DNA of 64,000 bases from Nitrososphaera sp. (GTDB taxonomy: Archaea; Thermoproteota; Nitrososphaeria; Nitrososphaerales; Nitrososphaeraceae): the NCBI GenBank assembly GCA_039938515.1, contig JBDUUL010000024.1, positions 1 to 64,000 of the forward strand, written 5' to 3'. Within the stretch, counting starts at the first letter, position 1. Each line of letters begins with the position of its first letter. The position numbers and the translations under genes are program-made. Shown here in pieces: positions 5,773 to 25,137 of the stretch. The notes below the pieces were generated by a model, which was not told the DNA's origin, made no database searches, and was given only the letters and a program-made list of their open reading frames with translations.

Positions 5773-6189
5773 TCCGTTAGCAAGCGATGAACGGCAGCGC
5801 TGCTCGCCGCTGATCCACGCTGTGAATTCTCGGAATCTTTGCCATACTGGGAGCTATTGCATTAGCTCAATAGCCAGTCATTCTGGAAAAGGCCGACGCG
5901 TCGTAAACACAGGTTACGGAACTGAACCATGGGCCGCAAGGGACTCAGGACAAATTAGTCTTGAATCTCAATTTGGGTCGGGCCTACAAGCCTTTGAATC
6001 GTGTGCCGCAAGGTCCACAGCAGGGGATCACTCGTGCAAGTGAATATCAACAATTCAAAGGGAAAAGAAAGCTCATGCGTCCCACCTATGCTACAAGTTG
6101 GAGTCTAATTCAAATCACACATTAGGTCATTCGATAGAGGTCTCCTCAGATTTGTTGAGTCATGTAACTATAACAACTATCTTGAATAA
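5773..6189. other. Gene-poor stretch with a degenerate copy of the tRNA-Ile 3' end
   Basis: No convincing gene is visible. At 5929-5946 the sequence ATGGGCCGCAAGGGACTC matches the 3' end of the tRNA-Ile gene (25063-25080) at 15 of 18 positions, all mismatches being C/T transitions. This could be a decayed attachment site from an older insertion, or chance. A 10-bp palindrome, CGACGCGTCG, lies around 5894-5903. Confidence 0.3.
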
Positions 6190-8234: not shown

Positions 8235-8348
8235 CTGGATCAAGTCAAGCGAGTACGCATGCAAAGGGAAAAGACCTATTGTTCTTTTGTGCATCATTTA
8301 CTATATGCCTCCTAATAGGGTAGGATCCAAATTAAGAACCGTTATCGG

Positions 8349-8366
8349 AATGGGCCGTAAGGGATT
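8349..8366. repeat. Distal attachment site (copy of tRNA-Ile 3' end)
   Basis: This is identical over 18 bp to 25062-25079 and diverges immediately on both sides. The surrounding intergenic stretch 8235-8678 holds no gene that I can support. Its right end carries the TATA region (about 8641-8656) of the first element gene. Confidence 0.75.
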
Positions 8367-8678: not shown

Positions 8679-8912
8679 GTGTATGTCCTCAAGTTGCAGA
8701 GGAAAATAGAGGTCAGAAGAGAGCGCATATTGCAGGTGCTCCCTGGAAAACAATTAGACGGGAAGACCATGGTAGAAGTTTTGTCAGCACTCAACCATGA
8801 CTATTCTTTAGCTACAATCAGAACGGACCTCATGGCACTAATGGAAAGAGGAGAAATCTCTTGTGATGATAAAAGAAAACCGACCATATGGTGGAGGGCT
8901 AGGCAAAAATGA
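8679..8912 (+). CDS. Small winged-helix-like protein
   Basis: The 77-residue product starts at GTG about 28 nt after CTATATACTTAAATA, so it is probably leaderless. The sequence ILQVLPGKQLDGKTMVEVLS, then SLATIRTDLMALMERGEIS, fits helix-turn-helix plus wing: a recognition helix following 'SLATIRTDL' and a hairpin at the end. It overlaps the next gene by 4 nt (ATGA), so the two are translationally coupled. It is likely the regulator or a partner of the DCD-like and TS-like genes. The fold is inferred. Confidence 0.55.
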   Translation: MYVLKLQRKIEVRRERILQVLPGKQLDGKTMVEVLSALNHDYSLATIRTDLMALMERGEISCDDKRKPTIWWRARQK

Positions 8913-9673
8913 ATACAGAACCTGCAACCCAAGACAATCATCCGGATGTTAAAGGAGTACTTCTATCAGATGAAATCGAATACTGTGTTGAAAATTATGA
9001 TTTAATTAGACCATTCGAAATTCGCAACTTACGTCCAGCGAGCTATGATTTCACAATCGGCGACGTATACAAGAAAGGTGGCAGAGAGTATACTCTAGAT
9101 GCACAAAATCGTACTCTCGAGATCAAGCCGCACGAAGCAGTCGTGGTTTCTACAAGAGAATCATTGAACATGCCAAGATTTTTGGTTGGTCGATGGAATC
9201 CCAAAGTAAAAAAAATCTTTCAGGGACTCGTATGGGTCGGAGGAGTGCATATTGATCCTGGTTGGACGGGACCGTTATGGTGTCCTGTGTATAACTTATC
9301 ACGTGAGACTATCTGGTTGAACCGCGGCGACACCTTCGCTTCAATAGATTTTGAGAAGACATCAGAGTATCACGAAGGATTGAGTCAACCTTATCCCTCA
9401 GGTAAGAGACCTGAGTTAACTCATCCTGGAAGCGGGCTTGAAATCGTTCGTGATGAAGTGAAGAGTTTCCCAAAAAGATTAGAAATGTTCCAGACTACTA
9501 ATTTTGCCATACTGGCAATAATCGTCGCTGCACTATCCGTCATCGCTGTCGCGCCTGACGGGAAGATGCCAAATTTTCAATATGATCAATTGAGTACTGG
9601 TATAAGCATTGGTGCACTATTTCTTTCTGTGATGGCATTAGTTGCGTCGTATATCAGAACTAGGAGGGATTGA
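8909..9673 (+). CDS. dCTP deaminase/dUTPase-fold protein fused to two C-terminal membrane helices
   Basis: The product has 254 residues. The N-terminal 170 follow the trimeric DCD/dUTPase fold: LRPASYDFTIGD, the equivalent of PxSxDLxLG, then VHIDPGWTGPLWCPVYNLS. The C-terminus has two hydrophobic helices (about 192-212 and 229-248) ending in RTRRD, so the domain is tethered to the membrane. Aligned by eye to E. coli Dcd, catalytic Ser111, Arg115 and Glu138 correspond to K99, I103 and P126, so deaminase chemistry is unlikely by the known mechanism. It may bind or sense nucleotides. It is coupled to the upstream winged-helix gene; the thymidylate-synthase-like gene starts 4 nt after its stop. 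Confidence 0.65.
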   Translation: MNTEPATQDNHPDVKGVLLSDEIEYCVENYDLIRPFEIRNLRPASYDFTIGDVYKKGGREYTLDAQNRTLEIKPHEAVVVSTRESLNMPRFLVGRWNPKVKKIFQGLVWVGGVHIDPGWTGPLWCPVYNLSRETIWLNRGDTFASIDFEKTSEYHEGLSQPYPSGKRPELTHPGSGLEIVRDEVKSFPKRLEMFQTTNFAILAIIVAALSVIAVAPDGKMPNFQYDQLSTGISIGALFLSVMALVASYIRTRRD

Positions 9674-9677
9674 CATT

Positions 9678-10700
9678 ATGATTGCAGAAACTAAGGAGAG
9701 CGATTTGGATTCCATCTATGTTAAAGTACTAAAAGACATTCAGAAAAATGGTGAGACAGTCGAAGCGATAACTGATGCATTTTCAGTGGGATCAAAGTTC
9801 GGTGAAACTGCTAGATCGACACGCGAATTAATTGCCTACAAATTCATCCTTAGTGATCCTAGAGCAAGATTGCTTTACAATGAAGCGCGACAGTTTGACT
9901 TAACTTTTGCCTTCGCGCAATTTTTATGGAACATTTCTGGATCTGATCAACTGAGCGCGATCTCGTTTTACAATGGTAAGGGGATTGATTTTTCTGATGA
10001 CGGAAAAACCATTTGTGGTAGTTCCTACGGAAAGCGCTTGTTCAAGACCCCGACAGATAGAAGCCAAATAGAATCTATTGTAAGTAGACTGAAACATGAT
10101 CCTACATCAAGAAGGACATTTGCAACAATCTTCCAGCCTTCAGACAATGTCACAATGACTAGAGACGTGCCTTGCCCTATTGGAGTGCAATATCTGATAC
10201 GCGATGATAAATTACATGCCATTACTTTCATGAGATCCAACTCGGCGGCATTTGTCCTGCCATACAATGTGTTCTTTTTCACTATGGTGCAGGAACTAAT
10301 CGCTCTGGAAGTAGGTGTGGAATTGGGCGAGTATATTCATATGTGTGGCTCCTTGCATTATTACGACGACGAGACTCGCCTAGTGGAGCATGCTTTATCC
10401 TGCGAAGTGCCGAGCAGGAATCCAATGAAACCAATGCCAAAGTTTACAGATAGAGAATATCTGAGCAGCCTTACTTCATTTGACTCTGATCTTAGAGAAG
10501 CTGTAGAAAATTCCAGATTTAATGCTGATCAATGGATTGAGCGCGCAAAGAAATTTGATCCTTACTGGAGCCAGGTTGCGCTCCTCTTTGTCTATCATGC
10601 CCTCAGAAAGACCAAACAAGATGACATTATTCCGTCGCTTGCCCATGAACTGAATCACGAATATCTCTTCTTCTTGGAGGAACTAAAAATAAGACACTAG
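9678..10700 (+). CDS. Thymidylate synthase/hydroxymethylase-like protein
   Basis: The 340-residue protein starts at ATG 9678, with a strong AGGAGG 10 nt upstream; the longer TTG frame is less likely. Family motifs are in order: GSSYGKRLF, DPTSRR, DVPCPIGVQY with the nucleophilic Cys (C166), FMRSNSAAFVLPYN and GSLHYYDD. Asn197 (PYN) matches the Asn that selects uracil in thymidylate synthase; dCMP hydroxymethylases have Asp there. However, the positions of E. coli Glu58 and Asp169 read Q81 and S189. It is therefore a divergent member that probably acts on or binds dUMP. A C-terminal extension of about 80 residues is unassigned. It forms an operon with the DCD-like gene. Confidence 0.7.
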   Translation: MIAETKESDLDSIYVKVLKDIQKNGETVEAITDAFSVGSKFGETARSTRELIAYKFILSDPRARLLYNEARQFDLTFAFAQFLWNISGSDQLSAISFYNGKGIDFSDDGKTICGSSYGKRLFKTPTDRSQIESIVSRLKHDPTSRRTFATIFQPSDNVTMTRDVPCPIGVQYLIRDDKLHAITFMRSNSAAFVLPYNVFFFTMVQELIALEVGVELGEYIHMCGSLHYYDDETRLVEHALSCEVPSRNPMKPMPKFTDREYLSSLTSFDSDLREAVENSRFNADQWIERAKKFDPYWSQVALLFVYHALRKTKQDDIIPSLAHELNHEYLFFLEELKIRH

Positions 10701-10703
10701 AAG

Positions 10704-10810
10704 TCATCTCATAAATGGTCGTTACGAAGGGCAGCGTCGCAAGAGCCAAAAATCATGGTTGACTTTACGGTGAAATCGATAGTTGACTTTTCTTAATATT
10801 TATGAGATGA
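10704..10810. repeat. 13-bp perfect inverted repeat between convergent operons
   Basis: TCATCTCATAAAT (10704-10716) is exactly inverted at 10798-10810. The inner 81 nt contain GTTGACTTT twice. It may be a bidirectional terminator, a regulatory RNA or a small non-autonomous insert; no target-site duplication is evident. Confidence 0.6.
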
Positions 10811-10833
10811 GTTCTAGTTAAAGGATCACTTCC

Positions 10834-11439
10834 CTATTCCCATTGAAATTGAGATGTAATGTCCTTAATGGCCGTATCCGTGGTAATATCTATATCAGTT
10901 GTATTGATCTCGATAATAGGGCACGATTTCCACTCTCCCACGAACTTATTGAAAGCAGTTTGCAAATCATTCAGATAATCCATGCTTATGGTTTGCTCGG
11001 CATCTCGATTTCTTCCTTTAATTCTGCGATTTAAAGTGTCGATGTCAGCACGTAAAAAAATTAACAAATCTGGTTGGTGCAGCTCTCCGCGCCGTGAATC
11101 AAGTATCTGTTCCAAGAGGGCGTATTCATTGATGTCTATATACCCGCGACTAAGCATCACATTAGAGTAGACACCGTTGTGTTCATTTATAACATAATCT
11201 TGACACACTACTTGCGTTGAGAAATCTAGCTCTGCATGCCGGAGGATGCTTTGCATGAGTATGTAAACCTGATTTTGAAACGCATAATTTCCTTTTTCTT
11301 GATAGTATCTCTTCAGGAATGGACTTTTGTGTGCCTGCGAATAATTTGGAATCCATTTGAAAATACCGCATAGCCTTTGACATAAAGTTGTAGTTCCGGC
11401 ACCGATGTTGCCAGTAATGTTTACAAATTTCTGCATCAT
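10834..11439 (-). CDS. Deoxynucleoside-kinase-like P-loop protein with altered Walker A
   Basis: The 201-residue product has the length and layout of the dNK/dGK family: a GNIGAG P-loop at residues 10-15, FLKRYYQE...FQNQVYILMQSI, LLIFLRADIDTLNRRI and a lid RRIKGRNRDAEQ. The Walker A Lys is replaced by Thr (GNIGAGTTTL, T16), and the usual catalytic E-P segment after strand 2 reads PNYSQAH. Kinase activity by the standard mechanism is therefore doubtful. The ATG overlaps the end of the methyltransferase gene by 4 nt, so the three minus-strand genes 12997-10834 form an operon. Confidence 0.65.
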   Translation of the reverse strand: MMQKFVNITGNIGAGTTTLCQRLCGIFKWIPNYSQAHKSPFLKRYYQEKGNYAFQNQVYILMQSILRHAELDFSTQVVCQDYVINEHNGVYSNVMLSRGYIDINEYALLEQILDSRRGELHQPDLLIFLRADIDTLNRRIKGRNRDAEQTISMDYLNDLQTAFNKFVGEWKSCPIIEINTTDIDITTDTAIKDITSQFQWE

Positions 11440-12401
11440 TTTTTCACTGCTTCAAGAATCCAATTTAGGGTATTAAACTTCCTCCAACGAGGCCTGCTAA
11501 ATCCAACAGAAAGAACTAAGTCTCTAAGCTGATGTTTATTCCACACATGACCATCACGGGTGCAAATTAGCATATTAAGATCGAACAGATTAGCCATCTG
11601 AGAACCTTTTATCCACTCGTTAATTATGATTTTACCATTACGATGTAATGCGTCAAAGGTTTTTGAAGCAAGCTGTCTCGCTTCATTTCTACTTTTGCCA
11701 TGTAAGACGTTGCTAATCAAAGCTACGTTAAAATCATTTGGCCATTTGGATAAGAGTAGGTCCCCCGGAATCACAGAGATTCTCTGTTCAAGGTGATATT
11801 CTTTTATTACTTTTCTTGTGAGCAGAGCAATCTCAGTTCTGTCAATAATTGTAGCATTCAGTGATGGGTTATCAATTGCAGCCAATATAGTATAATGCCC
11901 TAGGCCTCCACCAACATCAAGAAGTTTAATCTTTCCTCGTAGGTTAACCACATCTTGCAACTTTCTATATTGGAGCAAATACAATTCCATCAAACCATAA
12001 GCATAACTTGCTACGTTCAAATCATGTGTATTCTTGAGAATCGGAGCATCAGTTCTGATTGATTCTGATAAGCTTGCCCATGATCGGAATAGATTCTTGT
12101 GATGCGCTGTCCAATTCCTAATCTTTCCGTTAATTCCAAAGCATTCGATCCCTAATCTGGTAGGTCTATATCTAATTCTGGAACCGGATGCTGGAGATCC
12201 CTTCACCAATCCTAAATCTTTCAGAGCAAGTAAAAGCCGTTCAATGCCACGTTCGGAAACTTTTAGTCTGAGAGAGAGTTCTTCGGAGTTGCTTTGTTCA
12301 TGCTCAAGAAGTGGAATAATTTCCAACTCATTAGCCGCCATTATTACTTGTGCTTGTTCATACTTTTCAATGAGTTGCATTACATCAGATATTTTTTTCA
12401 C
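11436..12401 (-). CDS. O-methyltransferase with N-terminal winged helix (ASMT-like)
   Basis: The 321-residue protein starts at GTG. An N-terminal winged-helix dimerisation domain (about 1-85, SNSEELSLRLKVSERGIERLL) precedes a Rossmann methyltransferase whose SAM motif is intact (LLDVGGGLGHYTILAAID, about 160). VALISNVLHGKSRNEARQ is the family's motif after strand 4. The layout matches the acetylserotonin/polyketide O-methyltransferase group that methylates small molecules. The chromosomal protein at 52936-53925 has the same architecture. It lies between the UDG-like and kinase-like genes; the substrate is unknown. Confidence 0.75.
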   Translation of the reverse strand: MKKISDVMQLIEKYEQAQVIMAANELEIIPLLEHEQSNSEELSLRLKVSERGIERLLLALKDLGLVKGSPASGSRIRYRPTRLGIECFGINGKIRNWTAHHKNLFRSWASLSESIRTDAPILKNTHDLNVASYAYGLMELYLLQYRKLQDVVNLRGKIKLLDVGGGLGHYTILAAIDNPSLNATIIDRTEIALLTRKVIKEYHLEQRISVIPGDLLLSKWPNDFNVALISNVLHGKSRNEARQLASKTFDALHRNGKIIINEWIKGSQMANLFDLNMLICTRDGHVWNKHQLRDLVLSVGFSRPRWRKFNTLNWILEAVKK

Positions 12402-12421
12402 ACTGATCGGCCGTGCCCCAC

Positions 12422-12997
12422 TTACTTGTTTTCGCTAATTAATATTCTAACTAGATCGTTTGTGTAGTTGGCGACGATCACTTTTCCTTGTTTCATAATG
12501 TATGAAGGATGATACATAGGATAAACAGTACGGCCCTTCGATTGTACACTCTTTCCAACAGAGCTTGGCCAAGCATCACTCCCTAGGATACTAATGATTG
12601 CATCCTGCCCGAGTGGGATTATTATAGCTGGATCAACCAGATTGATTTCCTGCGACATGAAATGTGCACAATTCATGATTTCATGTGGGAGCGATTTTCG
12701 ATTATCCGGGGTATGACAATGTACTACATTCGTTATGAATACATCAGCTTTTTGCAAACCTGCGATCCTAAAGGCATTATCCAATAGGCGGCCCGATCCA
12801 CCAGTAAATGGAATTTGTGTGCGCATACATGGTCTGCATAAACTCTGGCCTATTATCATGACCTTTGATTTCAAACTTCCATATCCAGGAGAATTTTCTG
12901 TTATACCTTTAATGTTTAGCCCAAGACATTTCTGACACCGCTTGATGTCTGTTACTAGAGCATCAAACCTTAGTTGCTTTGAAATTAGGCCTGTCAT
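12422..12997 (-). CDS. Family-4-like uracil-DNA glycosylase with divergent motif 1
   Basis: The 191-residue product carries the Fe-S cluster pattern of family 4 UDGs: C21-x2-C24, then VFITNVVHCHTPDNR, and MNCAHFM. It also has the conserved PAIIIPLGQDAI strand and the C-terminal MYHPSYIM motif (HPS). The first catalytic motif, normally GE(A/G)PG, reads IGQSLCRPC, with extra cysteines. PFTGGSGRLLDNAF is conserved. Either substrate or activity has shifted. It is the first gene of the minus-strand operon, 20 nt before the methyltransferase. A CTTAATTC box lies about 35 nt upstream. Confidence 0.7.
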   Translation of the reverse strand: MTGLISKQLRFDALVTDIKRCQKCLGLNIKGITENSPGYGSLKSKVMIIGQSLCRPCMRTQIPFTGGSGRLLDNAFRIAGLQKADVFITNVVHCHTPDNRKSLPHEIMNCAHFMSQEINLVDPAIIIPLGQDAIISILGSDAWPSSVGKSVQSKGRTVYPMYHPSYIMKQGKVIVANYTNDLVRILISENK

Positions 12998-13360: not shown

Positions 13361-14827
13361 TTAAATTCCATCTCTCTTCTTAATTCTCTCCAAGAGCAAT
13401 GATGCAGGTTCATCATTTGGATCTTGTGCGACCAATTTGCCTGAAAACGCTTTCGTGAGGATAGAACCATCTATACTATAGGCTCTTCTTCTAACCTCAG
13501 TAACAGATCTCTCAATATCTTCTGCAAAATTCAAGATAACCTTTACCTTAGCTACTATCCTCTTCTGTTCTTCAAAAGGAGGGATAGGCACTACCAATTT
13601 TCTCATTGAACCAATATTGAAATGCGTTTGAGCAATACCGACTTTCCCGAAGTTGATTTGATCTCGAGCGTATGCTGAATTAATGTAGAATGAACCATAT
13701 TCTGAGAGTAGACAAGATAAAGGTCTCATAATTATAAGGTCTGAACAGTTAGCATCTTTCAAGGTGCCAGGAATGACACATGAAATTCCCACATTGCCTG
13801 ACCTTACTACTACTATGTTGCCGGGTTCAAGCTTTGACTTCGATAATTTATTATGGAAACTCTCAGAGATAAACTTCAAGTCAGTCGGATCAAAATAATT
13901 TTCCCTTACGTTCAGTGACCGAAGGAAAGGTATCCCATTTTCAACATACTCTTTCATCATCGGCCCAACATGTCCGACAGTTATGTCCCGACATAATTCC
14001 TCGAAAGTAGTCCATACCCAGCCAAGCGGTAATTTGGACAAGCCACTTGCTTCAACTTTCTTAGCATCATAGCATGCAGATTTGCCAACGTTCCTTCCAT
14101 CAGAATTATGCTTTATCGTTGTTGTTAAATGGTGCGCCCTTGTAGTACGGTTAAGCATTATTTCTGCGGGTACATCATTTGGGCTTTGAGGAACTAGCTG
14201 ACCTCTAAATGCAGATACCAGAACAGATTGTCTAATTCTCTTCATTATCCCCGGAACATTGTCTAAAGCATCACGCGCTGTCTTGCTATCACTAAAGAGC
14301 TCTTCTATTTTTGCAACTATGCGCCTCTGTTCATTAAGAGGTGGCATGGGAAATGGAATCGATGCTACGTCGTCCCTTCTTAACGAGGGTACGGTAGTAG
14401 CCCTACTGTACTGGCCCAATCTCACTGTTAACATGAAGTAATAGGCAAAGAGATTGTCGATACTTAGATCAAAACACTCCAATCCCATTATGTTATTGTC
14501 TACCAAAGACTCTTGCGCTAGAATCGCTCTCCTGTTCAGGGCAATAGCTGCTCCAATCTTGGCAAAGACTATAGCGCCTTTTTTCAGAGGTTTCGCGTTT
14601 AGACTTTTGCAGTCATCTTTGCTAACATAGTTGGCAGCCTGCGTAAGATACCTTTTTCCATTTAAGACGGCTTCTGAAATGTCTCCAACCTTAAAGAATG
14701 GAATTTGACCTTTCCTTCTTCCTTGGTACTCCAGAGGGAAGCCTGCCCCCGAAGCTATGCTGCAAACGCTTCCTACGTCGGCAAGAACCCAACCCTTCGG
14801 GAGACTCGGTATTGCTTGCGAGTTCAT
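13361..14827 (-). CDS. hsdS: Type I restriction-modification specificity subunit HsdS
   Basis: The 488-residue protein has two target-recognition domains. Each begins with the classic LPKGWVLADVGSV / LPLGWVWTTFEEL segment and ends with a conserved helical spacer (NEQRRIVAKIEELF at about 165; EEQKRIVAKVKVI at about 425), followed by FRGQLVPQSPNDVPAEIML / FSGKLVAQDPNDEPASLLL. This two-fold repeat is diagnostic: each half reads one part of a bipartite DNA target. It starts 4 nt after the hsdM stop and is the last gene of the R-M-S operon. Confidence 0.93.
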   Translation of the reverse strand: MNSQAIPSLPKGWVLADVGSVCSIASGAGFPLEYQGRRKGQIPFFKVGDISEAVLNGKRYLTQAANYVSKDDCKSLNAKPLKKGAIVFAKIGAAIALNRRAILAQESLVDNNIMGLECFDLSIDNLFAYYFMLTVRLGQYSRATTVPSLRRDDVASIPFPMPPLNEQRRIVAKIEELFSDSKTARDALDNVPGIMKRIRQSVLVSAFRGQLVPQSPNDVPAEIMLNRTTRAHHLTTTIKHNSDGRNVGKSACYDAKKVEASGLSKLPLGWVWTTFEELCRDITVGHVGPMMKEYVENGIPFLRSLNVRENYFDPTDLKFISESFHNKLSKSKLEPGNIVVVRSGNVGISCVIPGTLKDANCSDLIIMRPLSCLLSEYGSFYINSAYARDQINFGKVGIAQTHFNIGSMRKLVVPIPPFEEQKRIVAKVKVILNFAEDIERSVTEVRRRAYSIDGSILTKAFSGKLVAQDPNDEPASLLLERIKKRDGI

Positions 14828-14831
14828 TTAA

Positions 14832-16223
14832 TCACATCTTGGACTTTCCATTGCCAAGTTTGGAAACTAGATCATTCAATGAATTGAGCGCCGTTTCCAA
14901 GTGTGCAATAGCTTCATTAGCAAGCTCCGAGGGTTCCAGCAAATTACCAGAATCGCACGAACTGTCTTTTAGCCAGATGATATCAAGATTGTAGTCTCTG
15001 TTTTCAATCTCCTTCCTAGTAAATCGCTTAAACCTTTCAGATTCCTTCCGGGGCTTTTGGTTATAGCATTCTTCAAAGTCTCTAAAATAATCATCAGTTA
15101 ATGGGTGTCCTTTTGTAACTTTCTCGATATTTGTCCGAAGGTCGTAGATCCATGTTTCTTCAGTAGGCAAACCTTTCCTAAAGAACATGATGTTGGCTTT
15201 AACTCCGGTGGAATAGGGTGTGAACGTTCCTATCGGCAGTCGCAAGATCGTATGCAATTGGCAGTCTGTTAGCAACAGTTTTCGAATATCTTTTCCTGCG
15301 TTATCATCAAAAAAGACATTATCAGGTGCGACCATCGCTGCTCTACCTCCCGGATTTAGTATGTTTATTATGTGTTGGACAAAGTTCAATTGTTTGTTTG
15401 ATGTCTTAACAGTGAAATCTTCCCGTAAAGGAACTTCACCAGCACCTTTTGTGCCAAATGGCGGATTTGTCAAAATGCAGTCATATCTCCTGCTAGAGTG
15501 CCTTCCTTCGCTGAGAGAATCGCCATAAAAGATATCGGCCTCAATCTCGTGCAGATAGAGATTCATTAAGCCTAGCCTTCGGGTATCTAGCACGATTTCG
15601 CATCCAGAAAAGGTCTTTTTCAGTAGTCTGTTCATCTCTTCTCTTTTCAGCAGAGCACCTTCCTCTGTCTGGCGCATCGTCCATTCGTAAGCGCCTATGA
15701 GGAAGCCAGCAGTTCCCAATGCCGGATCATGTATAGTAAAGTCAGGTTTTTCCCGAATGTCTGGCTTCATGCACCTTACGACGCAACGTATTGCTTCCCG
15801 GGGTGTGAAGTATTGGCCTGCGCCTTTTTGCTCGGCTGCGTATTTTTGAAGCAATCCTTCATAGGCTTGAGCCTTGAGGTCGACATCAATTGTGGCCCAT
15901 TCTGTCTCGTCTATTACATTAATTAGCTTCTTAAGATTCACAGGCTCTCTAAACTTTGAAAGTGATCCAGCGAAGATGTCCCCAAGCACTCCGTTTTCCT
16001 TTGCCAACACTCTTAATAGCTCGTTGTAGTGGTCGAGCAACTCGGTTCCAGACCTATTCTTTAGCGACTTCCAATCAAAGCCGGTCGGAATGTCCACGCC
16101 CTTTTCGTCAACAAGTTTTAGAAAGAGTAGATAGGTTAGTTGCTCAATGTAATCGCCGTAGTTAATCCCGTCGTGCCGAAGGGTATTGCAAAAACCCCAG
16201 AGTTTTCCGATTACTTCTGACAT
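14832..16223 (-). CDS. hsdM: Type I restriction-modification methyltransferase HsdM
   Basis: The 463-residue N6-adenine methyltransferase has an N-terminal helical HsdM domain (LWGFCNTLRHDGINYGDYIE). QYFTPREAIRCVV, SAM motif I (HDPALGTAGFLIGAYEW) and catalytic motif IV NPPF in YDCILTNPPFGTKGAGE follow. It methylates host or element DNA at the site set by HsdS and is needed for restriction. Its start overlaps the hsdR end by 13 nt, so expression is coupled. All key motifs are intact. Confidence 0.94.
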   Translation of the reverse strand: MSEVIGKLWGFCNTLRHDGINYGDYIEQLTYLLFLKLVDEKGVDIPTGFDWKSLKNRSGTELLDHYNELLRVLAKENGVLGDIFAGSLSKFREPVNLKKLINVIDETEWATIDVDLKAQAYEGLLQKYAAEQKGAGQYFTPREAIRCVVRCMKPDIREKPDFTIHDPALGTAGFLIGAYEWTMRQTEEGALLKREEMNRLLKKTFSGCEIVLDTRRLGLMNLYLHEIEADIFYGDSLSEGRHSSRRYDCILTNPPFGTKGAGEVPLREDFTVKTSNKQLNFVQHIINILNPGGRAAMVAPDNVFFDDNAGKDIRKLLLTDCQLHTILRLPIGTFTPYSTGVKANIMFFRKGLPTEETWIYDLRTNIEKVTKGHPLTDDYFRDFEECYNQKPRKESERFKRFTRKEIENRDYNLDIIWLKDSSCDSGNLLEPSELANEAIAHLETALNSLNDLVSKLGNGKSKM

Positions 16224-18871
16224 AATACCATCACGTTAATTTTTTTCAAGAGTTCTGGCAGTTTGCCGTCAAACACTTCATTTGCCTTCTTCCAAGCACC
16301 ATGTCTGGAAAAAGGAGGATAGCTAAAATCTTTTTGCTCCACTATTAGGTTTGCAACTAGATGATTTCTTATAAGTGCAAGCCACTTTTCTTGTTCTTCA
16401 GTAAACTTGGTGTTCTTCTTTAGCATAGCGATTGCCTTATCGACTTTCTCCTCTGGCGGGATTAGAGGATCGCCATTTGCCGCATGTCTGACAATTCCTA
16501 CAATATCGGCAAGCGCGTTGTGGTATGCTCTTCTGAGGTTATCTTCGGTGAACCTCTCTGGTCTCTTCGAGAGCTTCGCCCTTAGCTCATTCAATTCCTT
16601 GGTTGTAAAGTTTGACGGTTTGTCAAGAAGGATCTTTATTGCATCGATATGGTCAGGGTTTGCCTTCACAAACTTCTCAAATGTCGCAATGTATTCATCT
16701 GGCTTGTACTCCTTACCATCCAGTGTTCTGAAGATCAGTTGTGATTCAATGGTATCTTCCTGCCCTTCCGCGACAAGGAATGGCTGCTTTGCCCTCGGAT
16801 AATCCTCCATCAATTCCAAGAATCTGTCATCTCTTAGAATCCTCATCGTCTCCGCCCAGTTAGTTTTGAGTTTTATGGGCAGAAATGCTGCAAAAGAAGA
16901 GATATCACCATCGGGGATAATACTATCAAACATCTCCCTTCCTTCCTCAGAAACGTTCTTTTCTACTCGTTGCAGCCTTCTCACCAAGCACTTAACGTTG
17001 TATTCTCGGTCTTTATTTCCATAGATTGCATCTACTAACTCTTTTACAGACCTCGTGGGTTTGTCTGGCGGGTCTGCTGTGAAATCGCTCGCGTTCTTGA
17101 AGTATTCTATTACTTCGACAGAGTCAAAGACTGTAAAGTATGATTTGTGAATGTCGTCTGCACGCCTCGTTCCCCTTCCCAGCATTTGCTCAAACAAAAT
17201 ACGCGACTTTACTGGCCTGACAAACACTAGGTTTTCTAATTTTGGAATGTCGACTCCGGTAGTGAGCATATCCACAGTTACCGCAATAGCAGGCTCTGGC
17301 CTGTTTCTAAACTCCCTAATTCTCTGTAATGGCCTATCAACTGTAGGACTTCCAGTAATTTTTTGAACAAACCCGTCGCCTCTGCCAAACTCTTCTCGCA
17401 GCATCTCAACTAGCATGTCTGCATGAGATGTGTGGGGCAAATCGTGAATAGCAAAGAATAGAGTCTTTGGGAATCTGCCATAGTCGCGCTCGAAATCTAG
17501 CGCATACTTCTTGAACTCTTGGACTATCTTCCTGTTCCTATCAGGAGCTGTAGCCTTCCTTTCCAAGTCTGTAGAATCATATTTGCGCTCATCCTCAAGT
17601 ACGTCAAAGACTTCCTTGCCGCTTTCTGGATCAACGAGCTTAACCTCTTCGCCTGGCTTGAGGAAGAATCCTTTCATCGTAATGTCGGTCTTAATCTTGA
17701 CAATATCGTAGTCTACCAAAAATCCTTCTCTAATTGCTCTCTCAAGGCCGTACCTGTATACAATATCATTGAAGTATGCCTTCGTGTGGGCTGCTGGAGT
17801 AGCAGTCAGGCCAACCTTTATCGCGTCAAAATGCTCCAGAACTTCGCGCCATTTGCCCTCCTCGGTGGAGGTATAACCTCTATGGCATTCGTCTGCTATT
17901 ATGCAGTCAAAGGCATTGATTGGAATGTCAAGCTTGCGAGCATCGGGCTCAGTCTCGTCTGATTCAAACATTCCTTCAGAGCCAAAGAGATTGATCCTCA
18001 TTCTCTGGATTGTGCAAATATAGATGTAGGTATGCTTGGGTTGAGGATTCTCCAAATAGTCATCAGGCAGTTTCTTAGAGTTGAACTTCTGGTCTTCAGA
18101 AAGATCCTCTTTGCGAATCCCTTGGCTGTATGTTTCGTATATCTTGTCAAACTTTAATCCAGTCTCAGGCTCAAAGGTAGATAGCGCGCCTACTGCCTGT
18201 GCAGCGAGGGCCCGCCTGTCAACAAGGAACAGGATGCGCTTAGCGAAACCGGACTTTAGAAGCCTATACATCAGTGTTGATGCTGTGAACGTCTTACCAG
18301 TTCCAGTGGCCATAGCAAGAAGCATCTTTCTCTTGCCCATGACTAGCGAGTCTTCTATCGCTTCGATTGCTTCTCTTTGATAAGGTCGTAGGTCTTTAAT
18401 CTCTACAGGATTGCTCTTGACCCATGATTCATAGCTCTCAGAACCTCTGAGCAGTTTCTCTTCGATAGCACTTGGAGTATGGAACCTCGCTATTTTGTAT
18501 GACTTGCTAGCCTTGTGTCTCAGGTCACGAAACCAGATGACTTCGCCATTTGTTGAATAGACAAGAGGAAGATGGTATCCGCTGAAATCGAAGTCCCCAT
18601 CAAAGTCTTGGGCGTACCTTTCTGCTTGGACTAGGACATTCTGAGGGCCCAGGGTCAACTTCTTTGCCTCTACCGCTGCAACTGCTCTGCCATTGAAAAA
18701 CAGAATATAGTCTGCAGGGCCGCTCGCTGTTGGGTGCTCTCTTACAGCAGCAAAATCGTAATGTTCGCCTTCTTGGAAATTGACTATGTTGCTCCAGCCA
18801 GATTCACGCAACAGCCTATCGATAAGTTTGAGCCTTGTCTTCTTCTCGCTCATGTAATTGGGATCTTTCAT
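16211..18871 (-). CDS. hsdR: Type I restriction endonuclease subunit HsdR
   Basis: The 886-residue protein starts at ATG 18871; ATG 18853 is an alternative, and the longest frame opens with TTG. An N-terminal nuclease region (PADYILFF...AVAAVEAKK) has the D...ExK signature. An SF2 translocase follows, with Walker A MATGTGKTFTAS, IADECHRGY (DEAD-like), GLTATPAAHTKAYF, TVDMLTTGVDIPKLE and QMLGRGTRRADD. The C-terminal part resembles the EcoEI HsdR C-domain. Length and motifs are intact, so the system should restrict. An AGTATTATAAC box about 55-60 nt upstream is the likely operon promoter. Confidence 0.93.
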   Translation of the reverse strand: MKDPNYMSEKKTRLKLIDRLLRESGWSNIVNFQEGEHYDFAAVREHPTASGPADYILFFNGRAVAAVEAKKLTLGPQNVLVQAERYAQDFDGDFDFSGYHLPLVYSTNGEVIWFRDLRHKASKSYKIARFHTPSAIEEKLLRGSESYESWVKSNPVEIKDLRPYQREAIEAIEDSLVMGKRKMLLAMATGTGKTFTASTLMYRLLKSGFAKRILFLVDRRALAAQAVGALSTFEPETGLKFDKIYETYSQGIRKEDLSEDQKFNSKKLPDDYLENPQPKHTYIYICTIQRMRINLFGSEGMFESDETEPDARKLDIPINAFDCIIADECHRGYTSTEEGKWREVLEHFDAIKVGLTATPAAHTKAYFNDIVYRYGLERAIREGFLVDYDIVKIKTDITMKGFFLKPGEEVKLVDPESGKEVFDVLEDERKYDSTDLERKATAPDRNRKIVQEFKKYALDFERDYGRFPKTLFFAIHDLPHTSHADMLVEMLREEFGRGDGFVQKITGSPTVDRPLQRIREFRNRPEPAIAVTVDMLTTGVDIPKLENLVFVRPVKSRILFEQMLGRGTRRADDIHKSYFTVFDSVEVIEYFKNASDFTADPPDKPTRSVKELVDAIYGNKDREYNVKCLVRRLQRVEKNVSEEGREMFDSIIPDGDISSFAAFLPIKLKTNWAETMRILRDDRFLELMEDYPRAKQPFLVAEGQEDTIESQLIFRTLDGKEYKPDEYIATFEKFVKANPDHIDAIKILLDKPSNFTTKELNELRAKLSKRPERFTEDNLRRAYHNALADIVGIVRHAANGDPLIPPEEKVDKAIAMLKKNTKFTEEQEKWLALIRNHLVANLIVEQKDFSYPPFSRHGAWKKANEVFDGKLPELLKKINVMVLCQK

Positions 18872-19026
18872 GAATATGACCAAGCTGGCGTGCTGCTAAT
18901 GATTTGATATCAAAAACGCACGTTATAATACTATATGTCGCCTTAAACGGACCAAAAACTATGTGCGCAAGTTCAAGTGAACCTTGTAAAAGGCCCTCCC
19001 GACTTTGGGTATCTGCTCGGTGTGTC

Positions 19027-19444: not shown

Positions 19445-20089
19445 TTAGGTGTCAGACACCTCGATAAACCCAAGGCCTTCTTTTTTCATTATTTTAAGGA
19501 TGGCTTTGCGGCCTTCAGGTGTCACCTTGAGCAAGTCAAAGATGCCTGTAGTTTGATAGTTTAGTTTTTGCTTTTCTGCAACGGCATTAACGTGATGGGC
19601 GACTTTCTGCCATACTATGACATCGCTATTCTCTATCCTCTCTGCGGCTCTTAGCATCCGCAGGTCTAGGTCAGCCATCTGAGCGGTAAGGGCTCGCTTG
19701 GCATCAATGTCAGTAGTAGAATTGCGATACTCAATCAAGTCATCGCGAAGAGATGACAGCCTTGTCATCTGTCTCTCGAAGAAACTTGAAAACGGTAGGA
19801 CCTCGTTTCCTGTTTTGCCCAGTTCTTTGTAGAGGAGTTGGATATCCGAGTTGACGGTATTCTTGTCAATCCTCATTATGCCTGCTATCTTGCGGGCGGA
19901 TATCCCGACCTCGAAGTGCAGCCGGTAAACTTCTTGGCGGCGCTTGTTTCGCTGTGACTTGGTGTAAGGTGCGAATTTTGACCTATGTTGACTGAAGTTA
20001 GCGTTCAGGCCGGCCATAAGATCAGGGCTTGCGTCAAGGCCGGTTGTGACAGACGGATCGGCACCGATATCAGCGACAGAATCAGTCAA
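19445..20089 (-). CDS. Helix-turn-helix protein following the element helicase
   Basis: The product has 214 residues from a TTG that overlaps the MCM end by 8 nt. After a disordered N-terminus and a basic patch (YTKSQRNKRRQEVYRLH) comes a clear helix-turn-helix (VGISARKIAGIMRIDKNTVN, then SDIQLLYKELG), as in resolvase or terminase-small-type DNA binders. A long helical region follows, ending in LLKVTPEGRKAILKIMKKEG. Coupling to the helicase suggests an origin-binding, copy-control or transcription factor of the element. The exact role is unknown. Confidence 0.6.
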   Translation of the reverse strand: MTDSVADIGADPSVTTGLDASPDLMAGLNANFSQHRSKFAPYTKSQRNKRRQEVYRLHFEVGISARKIAGIMRIDKNTVNSDIQLLYKELGKTGNEVLPFSSFFERQMTRLSSLRDDLIEYRNSTTDIDAKRALTAQMADLDLRMLRAAERIENSDVIVWQKVAHHVNAVAEKQKLNYQTTGIFDLLKVTPEGRKAILKIMKKEGLGFIEVSDT

Positions 20090-22064
20090 CTCGCAGCCTC
20101 CTGTCTGAGTCTCGGTCAGGAGGGTCAGTTGAGTCAGTTAGGTCAATAGAGCAGGATGTCTGCTGATCTATCTGACCTTTGACGTTTTCAGAATTTGGGC
20201 TGTGTTCCTTCATATCTGACCTATCTGCCTTATCTGACCTGCAAAGAACGAGCGGCTTTATCGATGTCACAACTATGTCATTGCCGGGTGCCTGCTCCAT
20301 GATGTCTCGGATTCCTCTCAGTTTCTTATTGTCTTCGACTCGCATCTTCTTTCCAAGATAAGCCCGCATTTGCTCGTTGCCAGGCTTTTCCATCGCAATC
20401 TTCGTCGCTTCTCTAAACTCTATTGGTGCTAGCATTGATAGGACAACTTTTTGAATCTCCTTGATTGCAAATACTCTAGGGTCTTCTGGCGTATAGATAG
20501 AACGTCCGTATTGCCTGATGACCGAGTTGTAAAACTCGATTGCAGCATTGGCGTCTGTCTCGTCTGCTACGATACTAAGCCTGAGCCGGGCAAAAGCCTT
20601 TGTACATTTGAATAAACTGTCTAAGATGCGCTTTGAGGTAAAGTCCTGGTCTGTGGCGATCTGTACCCAGTGCTCATTTAGCATGGCTTGGGCCTCGTCC
20701 GTCAGGACAGGATTGATGCTCTTTGCATAGTGAATGTATTTCTTGATAAAGTTGTAGTTGTACCGATTGCGCTTGCGTTCTCTATCAGACCTCTCATAGG
20801 CATATTTGCGATTGCCCTCTGAGGAGCTGTCGCGCCTGAACTCAAAGAGCAAGTCAAATCTGTCTCTTAGAGGCTTTACAAGTGGCAGCTCGGAATCAGA
20901 AATGCGGTCCTTGTTCTCCCAGGTAGCGCCTATCTGGTTTGTCGATGCAATGATTGTAGTCGGCGCATCTATTGGCTTGTCAAATCCGTGTTTATTGACA
21001 TTGAAACAGCCTTCCGCCATAATGTCAAAAAGGAAGGATTGATCCTCGAATGCTATCAAGCCTATCTCATTCACAGCACAAAAGGCTTGCTTTGCCATCA
21101 CTACGGGCCCAAATTTCAGGACAAACATATCGCCCTCTTTATCGACTATCGCAGTCATGGACTTCGGGCTTGCATATTGAGATGTGACATACTTGCTTGA
21201 CGGAATGAGTTTTACTCCGTCTCTCAATAAGAGCGACTTTGCCTCCCCCGGGTCGCCGGCGCATAATATGTTAATCCTAGAATCACGGTCTGCAGTATTT
21301 ACTGCTGAGAGAAGCAGGCCCTTCTTTGGTACGAAGTGGCCGACTACGCTTAACGCAACCATCGAAGTTAGCCTGTCGATTAGTGACCAAGTGTCAGCGC
21401 ATCTAATCGCCGCAAACTTTTTGACAGCCGCAATATCTTTGCATGTGAGCTCTAGCTCCTCACGGTGTTCATACTTGATACCCGCCGCATGCATTATTGG
21501 TGCTAGCCTGCTATTCCTGCCGCCGCCCTTTACAATGTGAATATCGCCTGTCACCGTGACGAGCTCACCGACGCCTACGGATTCGTTATCACTGCCAAAC
21601 AACACGACAGGTAGTCGTTCTAGCTCGTTCTTTGGCTGTGTATCTTGCATCCAGACGTTAACGGCTGTTAGGTACTCATGGGATGCACTGACTTCAGTGT
21701 CCTTGCATGATGGGCATTTACGATATTCTCTTTCATCAAAGCTTGCAAGCGGTACCTTGTACAGTATCTCGTCCACTTTGTCGCAATTGTTACAACGGAT
21801 CATCGTCTTTGAAATCAAGTTGTAAATATCAGAGCGTGAGACAATGACACCCTGAACGGTATGCCTTCCGCTTTGCTTCCTTAATGCCTGAGAAATTATC
21901 AGTGTCGGCGTTTCAAGGGCTGCAAGGAAATTTCTTGAAACGTACCTGTAGCAACTGCAATTCTGTATCCTACATCTGCCACGCTTACCATCAAAATGAT
22001 CCTCATGCTCCGTCTTGTCATGGCTGCATTTGCACGACTCGGAGATTGTGGCAACTGCTGTCAT
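20082..22064 (-). CDS. MCM-family replicative helicase of the element
   Basis: The 660-residue protein has two N-terminal Cys clusters (CKCSHDKTEH...CRIQNCSCYRY, then CNNC...CPSC near 91-120, the MCM zinc ribbon) and an AAA+ core. Walker A is CAGDPGEAKSLLL (K276) and sensor 1 is TIIASTNQIGATWE. The arginine-finger region PLVKPLRDRFDLLFEF is typical of MCM. Walker B reads FCAVNEIGL: the usual Asp is Asn332 while Glu333 is kept. The chromosomal MCM is expected elsewhere, so this copy should replicate the element. It is the third gene of a four-gene minus-strand run with 4-8 nt overlaps around it. Confidence 0.85.
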   Translation of the reverse strand: MTAVATISESCKCSHDKTEHEDHFDGKRGRCRIQNCSCYRYVSRNFLAALETPTLIISQALRKQSGRHTVQGVIVSRSDIYNLISKTMIRCNNCDKVDEILYKVPLASFDEREYRKCPSCKDTEVSASHEYLTAVNVWMQDTQPKNELERLPVVLFGSDNESVGVGELVTVTGDIHIVKGGGRNSRLAPIMHAAGIKYEHREELELTCKDIAAVKKFAAIRCADTWSLIDRLTSMVALSVVGHFVPKKGLLLSAVNTADRDSRINILCAGDPGEAKSLLLRDGVKLIPSSKYVTSQYASPKSMTAIVDKEGDMFVLKFGPVVMAKQAFCAVNEIGLIAFEDQSFLFDIMAEGCFNVNKHGFDKPIDAPTTIIASTNQIGATWENKDRISDSELPLVKPLRDRFDLLFEFRRDSSSEGNRKYAYERSDRERKRNRYNYNFIKKYIHYAKSINPVLTDEAQAMLNEHWVQIATDQDFTSKRILDSLFKCTKAFARLRLSIVADETDANAAIEFYNSVIRQYGRSIYTPEDPRVFAIKEIQKVVLSMLAPIEFREATKIAMEKPGNEQMRAYLGKKMRVEDNKKLRGIRDIMEQAPGNDIVVTSIKPLVLCRSDKADRSDMKEHSPNSENVKGQIDQQTSCSIDLTDSTDPPDRDSDRRLRVD

Positions 22065-23750: not shown

Positions 23751-25022
23751 CTATGACCTATCCAATAATCCCTTCTCATACAGAACCTTGTAAATCATGT
23801 CGAGCTTGTCTTCTTTTTCCTTCTCTTTGGCCTTGATTTCCTCATAAGCTGCAACGGTAAGCGGATAACTGCACTGAGGATTAGTGCAGTACTTGACATC
23901 TGGCGCATTTACGCGGTTGCATTTGGGGCAATTCAGTATCGAAGGCTTGTCCTTGGCTCCCTCAACAATGATTCCTTCTCTGGCTAGAATTTGAAGTTTC
24001 AGGTTATTGCCCATCCTAGAGCTGACGTATCGCCCAGGTTGGCGAGAGTTCATTGTCCAGCGAACTTTTTTTCGAAGTGCAAATTCAGGCAGCGAGTCAG
24101 AATCGTAAGTAATTGCAGAATGACGGATGCAATAAGGGTTCCATTTCTTTGTACGGAGCAGATGCTCTAAAGTCTCTCGTTCCTTTGGGTCAGTTATCTC
24201 GCCCTTTTTCAATAGCCTAGATATCCTGCCTCGTAACGATTGCATCATCTGCCACATTGATTCAGGATTTACAGGAGCGCCATTTTTCAGGCTGCAAATG
24301 ACTCTAGCATCGGGATTATCCTTGAAAGGATGCAGATTGAGCCAGTCGCGGACATATGGAAATGAGAGGGTTAGTAAAATGGGTCCACCGCCTGTTTTGG
24401 TGTTGTGCGGAATTTCACCTTCTGCGTACCTCTCGTTTAGGCGAATGTGCTTAATCTTCAGCACCGTTACTTCGTGATTTCTGGCGTCAAGATCCCAGAA
24501 AAGCCCAAGAGCCGCCTTATTTCTTGGATGTGTGCAATATCGCAATATAGACAGAATTTCTCCCTTGTCCCATTTTTCAGCGTCAGCATAAGGACTCTTG
24601 CGAGTCGCCTTCATGTGTTGCATTTTCGCAAATGCAGGAGTTTCCCAGCTGTTTGAATCTGTAAGGTCGTCGCGTCCCCGCTGGTTGTAGAGCCATCGAA
24701 AGAAAAACTTGATGCTGTCCTGATAGTCGTTGTAAGTAGTCTTCCATTTTTCATCCGGATCAATGTCTTTTGACTTCCTTTTGGTGTCAAGGAATGCGAG
24801 GATCTCGGATTGTTTGGAGACATCAAAGTATGACTTCCCGCCAAGGTGCATTGCAAATAATAGGTTCTGATAGACGTGATTCTTGATGTGTCGCTCACTG
24901 GCGCCAGTCCGATGCATGTAATCATGCATCTCAAGAAGAAGGGCTGCATTGGCCTGATTCGGCACGTCAGGAAGCCTTGAAATTACTCGGGTAAGACTCA
25001 TGGGCACTTTTTGAGGAACCAA
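23751..25022 (-). CDS. Tyrosine recombinase (integrase) with C-terminal zinc ribbon
   Basis: The longest frame has 423 residues (TTG start); ATG at 25001 gives 416. An N-terminal SAM-like core-binding region (YMHRTGASERHIKNHVYQNL) precedes the catalytic domain. That domain has first Arg DLDARNHEVTVLKIKHI, second box NPYCIRHSAITY and catalytic Tyr in RQPGRYVSSRMG. The C-terminus has a zinc ribbon, NCPKCNR...YCTNPQCSYPL, typical of thaumarchaeal integrases. The start is only 40 nt from the 3' end of tRNA-Ile, which carries the attachment core. It should catalyse integration and, with partners, excision. Confidence 0.88.
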   Translation of the reverse strand: MVPQKVPMSLTRVISRLPDVPNQANAALLLEMHDYMHRTGASERHIKNHVYQNLLFAMHLGGKSYFDVSKQSEILAFLDTKRKSKDIDPDEKWKTTYNDYQDSIKFFFRWLYNQRGRDDLTDSNSWETPAFAKMQHMKATRKSPYADAEKWDKGEILSILRYCTHPRNKAALGLFWDLDARNHEVTVLKIKHIRLNERYAEGEIPHNTKTGGGPILLTLSFPYVRDWLNLHPFKDNPDARVICSLKNGAPVNPESMWQMMQSLRGRISRLLKKGEITDPKERETLEHLLRTKKWNPYCIRHSAITYDSDSLPEFALRKKVRWTMNSRQPGRYVSSRMGNNLKLQILAREGIIVEGAKDKPSILNCPKCNRVNAPDVKYCTNPQCSYPLTVAAYEEIKAKEKEKEDKLDMIYKVLYEKGLLDRS

Positions 25023-25061: not shown

Positions 25062-25079
25062 AATGGGCCGTAAGGGATT
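25062..25079. repeat. Proximal attachment site within tRNA-Ile
   Basis: This 18-bp sequence is identical to 8349-8366. It covers the acceptor 3' strand and part of the T-stem of tRNA-Ile, so integration leaves the tRNA gene intact. Confidence 0.75.
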
Positions 25080-25137
25080 TGAACCCTCGACCTTTCGATT
25101 ATCAGTCGAACGCTCCACCAAGCTGAGCTAACGGCCC
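25064..25137 (-). tRNA. tRNA-Ile (GAU)
   Basis: On the minus strand the acceptor GGGCCGT pairs with ACGGCCC, the D-arm is GCTCAGCTTGGTGGAGC and the T-arm is GAGGG-TTCAAAT-CCCTT. The anticodon arm is TTCGA-CTGATAA-TCGAA with anticodon GAT. The discriminator is A and CCA is not encoded. A possible TATA (GAATTAAATATC, about 25160-25172) lies upstream. It is the integration target of the element. Confidence 0.95.

What the first reader, a model, noticed from the sequence alone, without database searches (positions are those of the whole stretch)
8679..12997. Two facing operons of divergent nucleotide enzymes: a candidate undescribed system
A wHTH protein, membrane-tethered DCD-like protein and TS-like protein converge with UDG-like, O-methyltransferase and dNK-like genes inside a mobile element. 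Four of the enzymes deviate at key sites: DCD S/R/E to K/I/P, TS E58/D169 to Q/S, kinase Walker A K to T, and UDG motif 1 changed. The set could make or sense a modified pyrimidine (as phage dUMP hydroxymethylases do), act as a nucleotide-pool defence, or make a nucleoside-like small molecule. Neighbouring restriction-modification genes fit a DNA-conflict role.
Basis: partly seen in the sequence, partly recalled or inferred. Interest (0 to 1): 0.85.

Follow-up and report, generated by a model that had tools for sequence, protein, structure and literature searches.

The report
Dead nucleotide enzyme membrane sensor pair
A mobile element in an archaeon carries a broken nucleotide-enzyme domain tethered to the membrane, paired with an odd thymidylate-synthase relative; the same kind of pair turns up in unrelated bacteria, often near defence genes, so it is probably an uncharacterised nucleotide-triggered defence module rather than part of a six-gene pathway.

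Summary
The six ORFs are real and lie in a 16.7-kb element bounded by an 18-nt copy of the tRNA-Ile 3' end. The 'one system of five enzymes' idea is not: the five families were not found together elsewhere. What recurs is the pair DCD-like-with-transmembrane-tail + TS-like, adjacent and same-strand in four bacterial genomes (Alphaproteobacteria, two Bacteroidota, Binatota). The TS partners of the archaeal and bacterial pairs are not one clade (AU p=0.005), so the pairing probably arose more than once. Elsewhere DCD-TM genes neighbour adenylosuccinate synthetase, dUTPase, a deaminase or a SIR2 protein. All 13 members collected lack the deaminase glutamate and have a TM tail; six lie near known defence genes. 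Best reading: a catalytically dead DCD/dUTPase-fold nucleotide receptor with a membrane effector tail, gated by a nucleotide the partner makes or holds, with Kongming-like logic. The window's TS is closest to MilA-type hydroxymethylases but has lost E58, D169 and G173, so its chemistry is uncertain. The facing UDG-OMT-dNK operon is probably independent cargo. No function was tested.

The parts
8349..8366 (.). left attachment-site repeat, AATGGGCCGTAAGGGATT
   Evidence: identical to 25062-25079 at the tRNA-Ile 3' end
8679..8912 (+). small winged-helix (HTH_DeoR-like) protein, 77 aa; stop overlaps the start of the DCD gene by 4 bp
   Evidence: HTH_DeoR E 0.017, weak
8909..9673 (+). DCD/dUTPase-fold protein without the deaminase glutamate, with two C-terminal TM segments (residues 197-215, 231-249): proposed receptor-effector
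   Evidence: Pfam DCD 2.8e-14; fold 4xjc E 4e-11, 8y1w 5e-11; residues and TM
9678..10700 (+). TS-family protein, hydroxymethylase-type; ATG at 9678 preceded by AGGAGG; keeps Cys146, Arg126, Arg166, Ser167, Asn177, His207, Tyr209; E58->Q, D169->S, G173->V
   Evidence: PDB best MilA 5b6d 1.2e-41 vs ThyA 6.7e-17; residues; tree
10701..10822 (.). stable hairpin between the convergent operons (long inverted repeat around TCATCTCATAAAT, arms 10704-10716 and 10798-10810); possible two-way terminator
   Evidence: MFE -47.4, z -5.5; arms
10834..11439 (-). dNK-fold pseudokinase (Walker A K->T, E->S, DR->DY); probably separate cargo
   Evidence: PADLOC VakA match 7.4e-10
11436..12401 (-). O-methyltransferase (Methyltransf_2 + Dimerisation), SAM motif DVGGGLG intact; probably separate cargo
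   Evidence: sequence
12422..12997 (-). family-4-like Fe-S UDG with motif 1 GQSLC, member of a plasmid-borne mycobacterial family; probably separate cargo
13361..18883 (-). type I restriction-modification genes hsdS, hsdM, hsdR on the same element
20082..22064 (-). MCM-like replicative helicase of the element (by eye)
   Evidence: sequence; not searched against a library
23751..25022 (-). tyrosine-recombinase-like integrase (by eye; no Pfam match)
   Evidence: Pfam none
25062..25137 (-). tRNA-Ile with right attachment-site repeat 25062-25079

Best explanation
The working unit is the two-gene pair at 8909-10700, with the small wHTH as its likely regulator. SHOWN by sequence or model: the first protein is a DCD/dUTPase-fold domain without the deaminase glutamate and with a membrane tail; the second is a TS-fold protein of the hydroxymethylase branch that keeps the nucleophile and the nucleotide-binding residues; the pair recurs in distant bacteria, and the first protein recurs beside other nucleotide enzymes, often near defence genes. 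INFERRED: the DCD-TM protein is a receptor-effector that binds a pyrimidine deoxynucleotide in its dead active site and, when that ligand appears or changes during infection, disrupts the membrane. The partner controls the ligand. In the bacterial pairs the partner looks like an intact dCMP hydroxymethylase and could make hydroxymethyl-dCMP, which a viral or host kinase would raise to a triphosphate read by the dead DCD. In the archaeon the TS keeps the uridylate-type Asn177 but has lost residues on the folate/hydroxylation side, so it more likely binds (perhaps covalently) dUMP or a related nucleotide, or does altered chemistry. Outcome: a nucleotide-triggered abortive defence carried by a mobile element.
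For: DCD-TM lies directly upstream of TS in L065, L079, L120, L127: the only four DCD hits in about 1.1 Mb of TS-locus sequence, all adjacent and same-strand, overlapping by 4 bp (L065, L127) or 21-22 bp apart (L120, L079). The bacterial DCD-linked TSs are one clade (98*; 100/99*), the window TS lies in another (96*; 93/94), and holding the window TS with them is rejected, p-AU 0.005: repeated pairing. 13 of 13 DCD-TM family members lack the glutamate and have a C-terminal TM segment. Other partners: adenylosuccinate synthetase (L024, L147), dUTPase (L028, L023), SIR2 (L023), cytidine/dCMP-deaminase-like (L146). Defence neighbours: Druantia DruF, Dcm, Vsr (L127), Dcm and REase_II-like (L065), type II R-M (L146), BilD and GajB-like (L024), PDC-S25 SIR2 (L023), type I R-M (window). 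L028's tail matches PADLOC CARF_TM, 5.4e-5. Core fold DCD/dUTPase. Bacterial partner TSs keep R126, C146, S167, E58, D169 and have D177 (dCMP type). TS domains have been validated in E. coli defence units (PMC13092281). Host dTMP can come from ThyX; the pair are the genome's only ThyA- and DCD-family genes.
Against: No function was tested. Only four of the 80 TS loci kept (cap reached) show the pair. The window TS lacks E58, D169 and G173, so the hydroxymethylation step drawn from the bacterial pairs may not apply to it. The window DCD is only 20-24% identical to the bacterial partners. The model of the TM tail is low confidence (pLDDT under 50 for 155-254). Some DCD-TM members keep parts of the phosphate-binding motif and might still hydrolyse nucleotides. 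Defence neighbours can reflect a general mobile-element environment. The ligand and the kinase step are by analogy only. The partner tally was made after seeing the loci.
Confidence: 0.45

Rival explanations
1. Small-molecule pathway: TS-like, UDG-like (as N-glycosidase), OMT and dNK-like proteins together make a methylated pyrimidine antimetabolite, as bacimethrin and mildiomycin clusters do with a TS-like hydroxymethylase, an N-glycosidase and a methyltransferase.
For: TS is closest to MilA in the PDB. Bacimethrin/mildiomycin-like clusters with TS + SAM-methyltransferase + nucleoside deoxyribosyltransferase-type gene are among the TS relatives. The closest relative L061 (42-43%) sits with a guanylate-kinase/methyltransferase fusion, a radical-SAM-like gene and a HAM1-like gene. 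OMT SAM motif intact.
Against: The kinase has lost its P-loop lysine and other catalytic residues. The window TS lacks the S167A/R126K signature of CMP enzymes. UDG relatives are Fe-S DNA-glycosylase types without OMT/dNK neighbours. DCD-TM pairs with TS without these genes. The two operons converge and are split by a strong hairpin.
Confidence: 0.13
2. DNA-base modification: the set makes 5-hydroxymethyl-dUMP-type nucleotides that are incorporated and further modified in DNA, protecting the element from restriction.
For: Many TS relatives sit with aGPT-Pplase/ADDT genes of hypermodified-thymine systems (46 of 80 loci). The window TS keeps the dUMP-type Asn177. R-M genes are adjacent.
Against: No aGPT-Pplase, DNA kinase or base transferase was recognised among the six proteins. 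The window TS lacks residues that all aGPT-linked TSs checked keep. The dNK-like gene is a pseudokinase. A membrane-tethered dead DCD has no role in this scheme.
Confidence: 0.1
3. Pool-tuning cargo: degenerate nucleotide enzymes acting as regulators or decoys (for example hetero-oligomers with viral dUTPase, TS or kinases), without a membrane effector.
For: DCD, TS and dNK are all non-standard at catalytic residues. The host has ThyX for dTMP.
Against: The TM tail is conserved in 13 of 13 DCD-family members collected. Bacterial partner TSs keep intact catalytic residues.
Confidence: 0.12
4. Chance gathering of unrelated decaying genes on a mobile element.
For: Lower G+C than the rest of the window (0.385-0.44 vs 0.516). 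No homologue of the dNK elsewhere in its genus. The five families do not co-occur elsewhere.
Against: ORFs are intact and tightly packed with 4-bp overlaps and a good ribosome-binding site. The DCD-TS pairing recurs in distant genomes.
Confidence: 0.15

Closest known systems
Kongming (KomABC) nucleotide-signalling defence
   Same: Proposed logic: an enzyme makes an abnormal deoxynucleotide that is raised to a triphosphate and switches on an effector complex (mechanism as described in PMC12774641)
   Different: There dAMP becomes dITP and the effector is the KomB-KomC NADase; here a TS-like enzyme, a DCD/dUTPase-fold reader and a membrane tail. Only L023 also has a SIR2 gene. No homology of components is claimed
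DefensePredictor-validated defence units with thymidylate synthase, dNMP kinase and 5-hmdU kinase domains (PMC13092281)
   Same: TS domain in an anti-phage unit; dUTPase and aGPT-Pplase domains predicted as defensive there
   Different: Exact architecture could not be read (figures not held); no DCD or dUTPase appears in the abbreviation list of the figure with the validated units
MilA CMP 5-hydroxymethylase / T4 dCMP hydroxymethylase branch of the TS superfamily
   Same: Best PDB match (E 1.2e-41); C-terminal extension; bacterial DCD partners have dCMP-type residues
   Different: Window TS lacks E58, D169 and G173 and keeps Asn177; it lacks MilA's S->A and R->K
dCTP deaminase / dUTPase family (Dcd, DCD-DUT)
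   Same: Fold and Asp-Pro-Gly motif
   Different: No deaminase Glu; C-terminal TM segments
SLATT / CARF-TM type TM effectors of nucleotide-centred conflict systems
   Same: Small C-terminal TM effector tail; L028 tail matches CARF_TM, window tail weakly SLATT_5 (E 0.049)
   Different: Sensor domain is a dead DCD/dUTPase fold; the SLATT match is far below cut-off

Membership tests
dCTP deaminase (enzyme) | DCD/dUTPase fold | tested here: met
   Foldseek 4xjc E 4.3e-11 on a model whose core is mostly pLDDT 70-90
dCTP deaminase (enzyme) | catalytic Glu138, Ser111, Arg115 | tested here: not met
   P, V, F in the window; Glu absent in 13/13 family members
Thymidylate synthase ThyA (enzyme) | nucleophilic Cys146 and dUMP-binding residues R126, R166, S167, N177, H207, Y209 | tested here: met
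Thymidylate synthase ThyA (enzyme) | E58, D169, G173 | tested here: not met
   Q, S, V
MilA/BcmA CMP hydroxymethylase | S->A and R->K ribonucleotide signature | tested here: not met
   window keeps S and R; the bacimethrin/NDT-linked TSs have A and K
dCMP hydroxymethylase (bacterial DCD partners) | Asp at position 177 with C146, E58, D169 kept | tested here: met
   L065, L079, L120, L127; activity not testable here
Kongming | KomA/KomB/KomC homologues | not tested
   no Kom sequences were on hand; only the working logic is compared
PADLOC-known defence system | match to a defence model by the pair's proteins | tested here: not met
   no match for window DCD/TS or for bacterial DCD/TS (only L028's tail to CARF_TM)
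Hypermodified-thymine system | aGPT-Pplase/ADDT gene beside TS | tested here: not met
   absent among the six proteins; present at 46 of 80 relatives
Family-4 uracil-DNA glycosylase | Fe-S cysteines and HP(S) of motif 2 | tested here: met
   C21, C24, C94, C110 and HP invariant in the alignment
Family-4 uracil-DNA glycosylase | motif 1 of the GE(G/A)PG type | tested here: not met
   GQSLC
Deoxynucleoside kinase (enzyme) | Walker A lysine and DRS/ERS motif | tested here: not met
   GAGTTT; DYV
SLATT effector | SLATT profile over cut-off | tested here: not met
   NF033631 E 0.049, 13.1 vs 60 bits

The most novel reading that the evidence does not exclude
A previously undescribed family of membrane-anchored, catalytically dead DCD/dUTPase-fold receptors that pair with interchangeable nucleotide-altering enzymes (TS/hydroxymethylase, adenylosuccinate synthetase, deaminase, dUTPase) in archaea and bacteria, forming a modular defence class that reads an abnormal deoxynucleotide and breaches the membrane.
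Probability: 0.3. Interest if true: 0.85.

Novelty: new variant of a known kind. Interest (0 to 1): 0.6.

Why it matters
If right, nucleotide-signalling immunity would include a new sensor fold (dead dCTP deaminase/dUTPase) with a membrane effector and swappable nucleotide enzymes, and would extend to archaea. It would also explain why catalytically broken nucleotide enzymes persist on mobile elements, and would link phage base-modification chemistry (dCMP hydroxymethylation) to host defence. The bacterial pairs are short, two-gene and ready for testing in laboratory E. coli.

Tried and rejected
Single-protein scans for DCD (genome contigs, viral contigs) and TS (viral contigs) found no relatives; an alignment of nine divergent DCDs was too variable to search with. 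The genome search cannot be centred on bacterial loci. Literature: no held paper joins SLATT with dCTP deaminase; the SLATT/thymidylate-synthase and VakA searches returned unrelated papers; Burroughs 2015 and the DOI tried for the hypermodified-base study are not held, so a prior mention of DCD-TM there cannot be excluded. Considered and rejected: canonical ThyA/Dcd function (residues lost; host has ThyX); a Panacea antitoxin next to the Nitrosopumilus TS (Pfam found nothing); the inter-operon hairpin as a repeated MITE (single copy in the genome). The second structure job and the 'viral' fold search were not used.
Full report
What is there. On the + strand lie a 77-aa wHTH (8679-8912), a 254-aa DCD-like protein (8909-9673) and a 340-aa TS-like protein (ATG 9678, stop 10700, AGGAGG upstream). 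Converging on them from the - strand are a UDG-like (12422-12997), an O-methyltransferase (11436-12401) and a dNK-like gene (10834-11439). Pfam supports five of the six clearly; the wHTH is weak. Between the operons an inverted repeat folds far better than shuffles (-47.4 kcal/mol, z -5.5) and is single-copy in the genome: a likely shared terminator.

The element. An 18-nt stretch at 8349-8366 is identical to 25062-25079, the 3' end of tRNA-Ile. A recombinase-like gene (23751-25022, recognised by eye, no Pfam match) lies beside the tRNA. The 16.7 kb between carry the two operons, type I R-M genes and an MCM-like helicase (by eye). Their G+C (0.385-0.48) is below that of the rest of the window (0.516). 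The tRNA side is conserved in the genus, while the left flank (6804-8340) was found in none of 17 other genomes of the genus. The dNK has no match in other members of the genus. A weaker copy of the repeat at 5928-5945 hints at an older insertion.

The host background. The genome's only ThyA-family and only DCD-family proteins are these two; a ThyX gene is elsewhere. So the island genes are not the host's only route to thymidylate.

TS-like protein. Its best solved relative is MilA, CMP 5-hydroxymethylase (1.2e-41), far ahead of ThyA (6.7e-17). Eighty related loci were fetched. 46 of them have an aGPT-Pplase/ADDT gene of the hypermodified-thymine type nearby, usually with a converging ImmA/IrrE gene and sometimes a UDG-like gene; others have nucleoside-deoxyribosyltransferase and methyltransferase genes, as in bacimethrin/mildiomycin clusters, or NDPK and radical SAM. 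The bacimethrin/NDT-linked enzymes carry the S->A/R->K change known from MilA (PMC5175136), which checks the residue mapping; the aGPT-linked and DCD-linked ones keep S and R and have Asp at 177, the dCMP type (that Asp marks cytidylate specificity is from my own knowledge of T4 dCMP hydroxymethylase). The window TS lies in a small clade with a cyanobacterial protein (42-43% identity), a Nitrosopumilus protein and mycobacteriophage Papyrus gp76 (SH-aLRT 96; 93/94 in the careful tree). All four lack E58 and G173, and three lack D169, but keep Cys146 and the phosphate- and sugar-binding residues. This suggests lost or altered folate chemistry with retained nucleotide binding (inference).

DCD-like protein. 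The predicted core (12-154) has the DCD/dUTPase fold (4xjc E 4e-11; Thermococcus dUTPase 8y1w 5e-11), while the TM tail is modelled with low confidence. Thirteen family members were gathered. None has the deaminase glutamate and all have a hydrophobic C-terminal segment. The glutamate is also absent from true dUTPases, so its loss excludes deamination, not phosphohydrolysis; the window protein further lacks the serine and arginine of the phosphate motif.

The pair. In four of the 80 TS loci a DCD-TM gene lies immediately upstream of TS on the same strand: Antarcticirhabdus (L065), a Flavobacterium MAG (L079), Chitinophagaceae (L120), Candidatus Binatia (L127). No other DCD-like frame was found in those 80 loci. 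Their TSs form one clade (100/99) to which the window TS does not belong (AU p 0.005; the group was named after seeing the loci, so the p value is a guide). The link therefore seems to have formed more than once or to have survived partner replacement. UDG, OMT and dNK genes do not accompany these pairs.

Partner swapping. Elsewhere DCD-TM genes adjoin other nucleotide genes: dUTPase in an archaeon (L028), SIR2 and dUTPase in Peribacillus (L023), adenylosuccinate synthetase in Sinorhizobium (L024) and, with a methyltransferase, in Agrobacterium (L147), and a divergent cytidine/dCMP-deaminase-like gene in S. meliloti (L146). A NUDIX-like neighbour in L031 was seen by eye only (Pfam none). Two members (L022, L148) have no recognised nucleotide partner. 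Defence genes lie near six of the thirteen: type I R-M (window), Dcm and a REase_II-like protein (L065), Dcm, Vsr and Druantia DruF (L127), type II R-M (L146), BilD and a GajB-like helicase (L024), PDC-S25 (L023). The TM tail of L028 resembles PADLOC's CARF_TM.

Mechanism. The most economical reading is a receptor-effector that binds a deoxynucleotide in a dead active site and acts on the membrane, with a partner that makes, removes or holds that nucleotide. Kongming is a precedent for the logic: a phage deoxynucleotide kinase, KomA and host NDK turn dAMP into dITP, which activates the KomB-KomC NADase (PMC12774641). For the bacterial pairs the natural candidate signal is hydroxymethyl-dCTP; for the archaeal pair a uridylate-type nucleotide. 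The fold, dead site, TM tail, pairing and neighbours rest on sequence and model; ligand, kinase step and membrane action are inferred. TS domains have been found in experimentally protective E. coli units (PMC13092281), whose architecture I could not read.

The facing operon. The dNK-like protein has lost the Walker lysine, a glutamate and the DRS arginine. The UDG belongs to a defined Fe-S subfamily on mycobacterial plasmids (41-50% identity) with nearly the same motif 1, without these neighbours. Nothing links these three genes to the DCD-TS pair except position.

Verdict. Confidence in a nucleotide-gated membrane-effector module 0.45; interest 0.6; new variant of a known kind, because nucleotide-signalling defence with TM effectors is known while this sensor-partner combination matched no PADLOC model and no paper I could read.

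Noticed in passing
L061:402-5261 (Cyanobacteria bacterium UBA11371): The closest TS relative (42-43%, also E58->N, D169->S, G173->V) lies in a cluster with a guanylate-kinase/methyltransferase fusion, a radical-SAM-like gene, an unknown 263-aa protein and a HAM1-like pyrophosphatase: possible modified-nucleotide pathway or signalling unit.
   Followed up: partly
L062-L139, e.g. L066, L075, L081: 46 of 80 TS-like loci carry aGPT-Pplase/ADDT near TS, mostly with a converging ImmA/IrrE gene and many with a UDG-like gene: a widespread bacterial module, perhaps the aGPT-Pplase systems predicted as defensive in PMC13092281.
   Followed up: partly
L059, L060 (Geobacillus and S. salivarius plasmids): Two TS-family genes with kinase-like genes, PqqD-like proteins and CYTH/phosphotransferase genes: looks like an uncharacterised nucleotide-derived natural product cluster.
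   Followed up: no
L206:5066-9528 (E. coli plasmid p1106-IncFII): TS + inosine/xanthosine triphosphatase + amidohydrolase + formyltransferase + MFS transporter run, apparently a nucleotide-derived small-molecule pathway.
   Followed up: no
L003/L076 (Nitrosopumilus): A TS of the window's clade lies near a MUG/TDG-type UDG gene; the 160-aa protein next to it matched no Pfam family.
   Followed up: partly
G000:C21:50599-51939: The host's ThyX match is two Thy1 domains in one 546-aa frame.
   Followed up: no
window 5928-5945: A second, degenerate copy (83%) of the attachment repeat, suggesting an earlier insertion at the same tRNA.
   Followed up: no
window 52936-53925: Another O-methyltransferase-like gene outside the element (by eye).
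   Followed up: no
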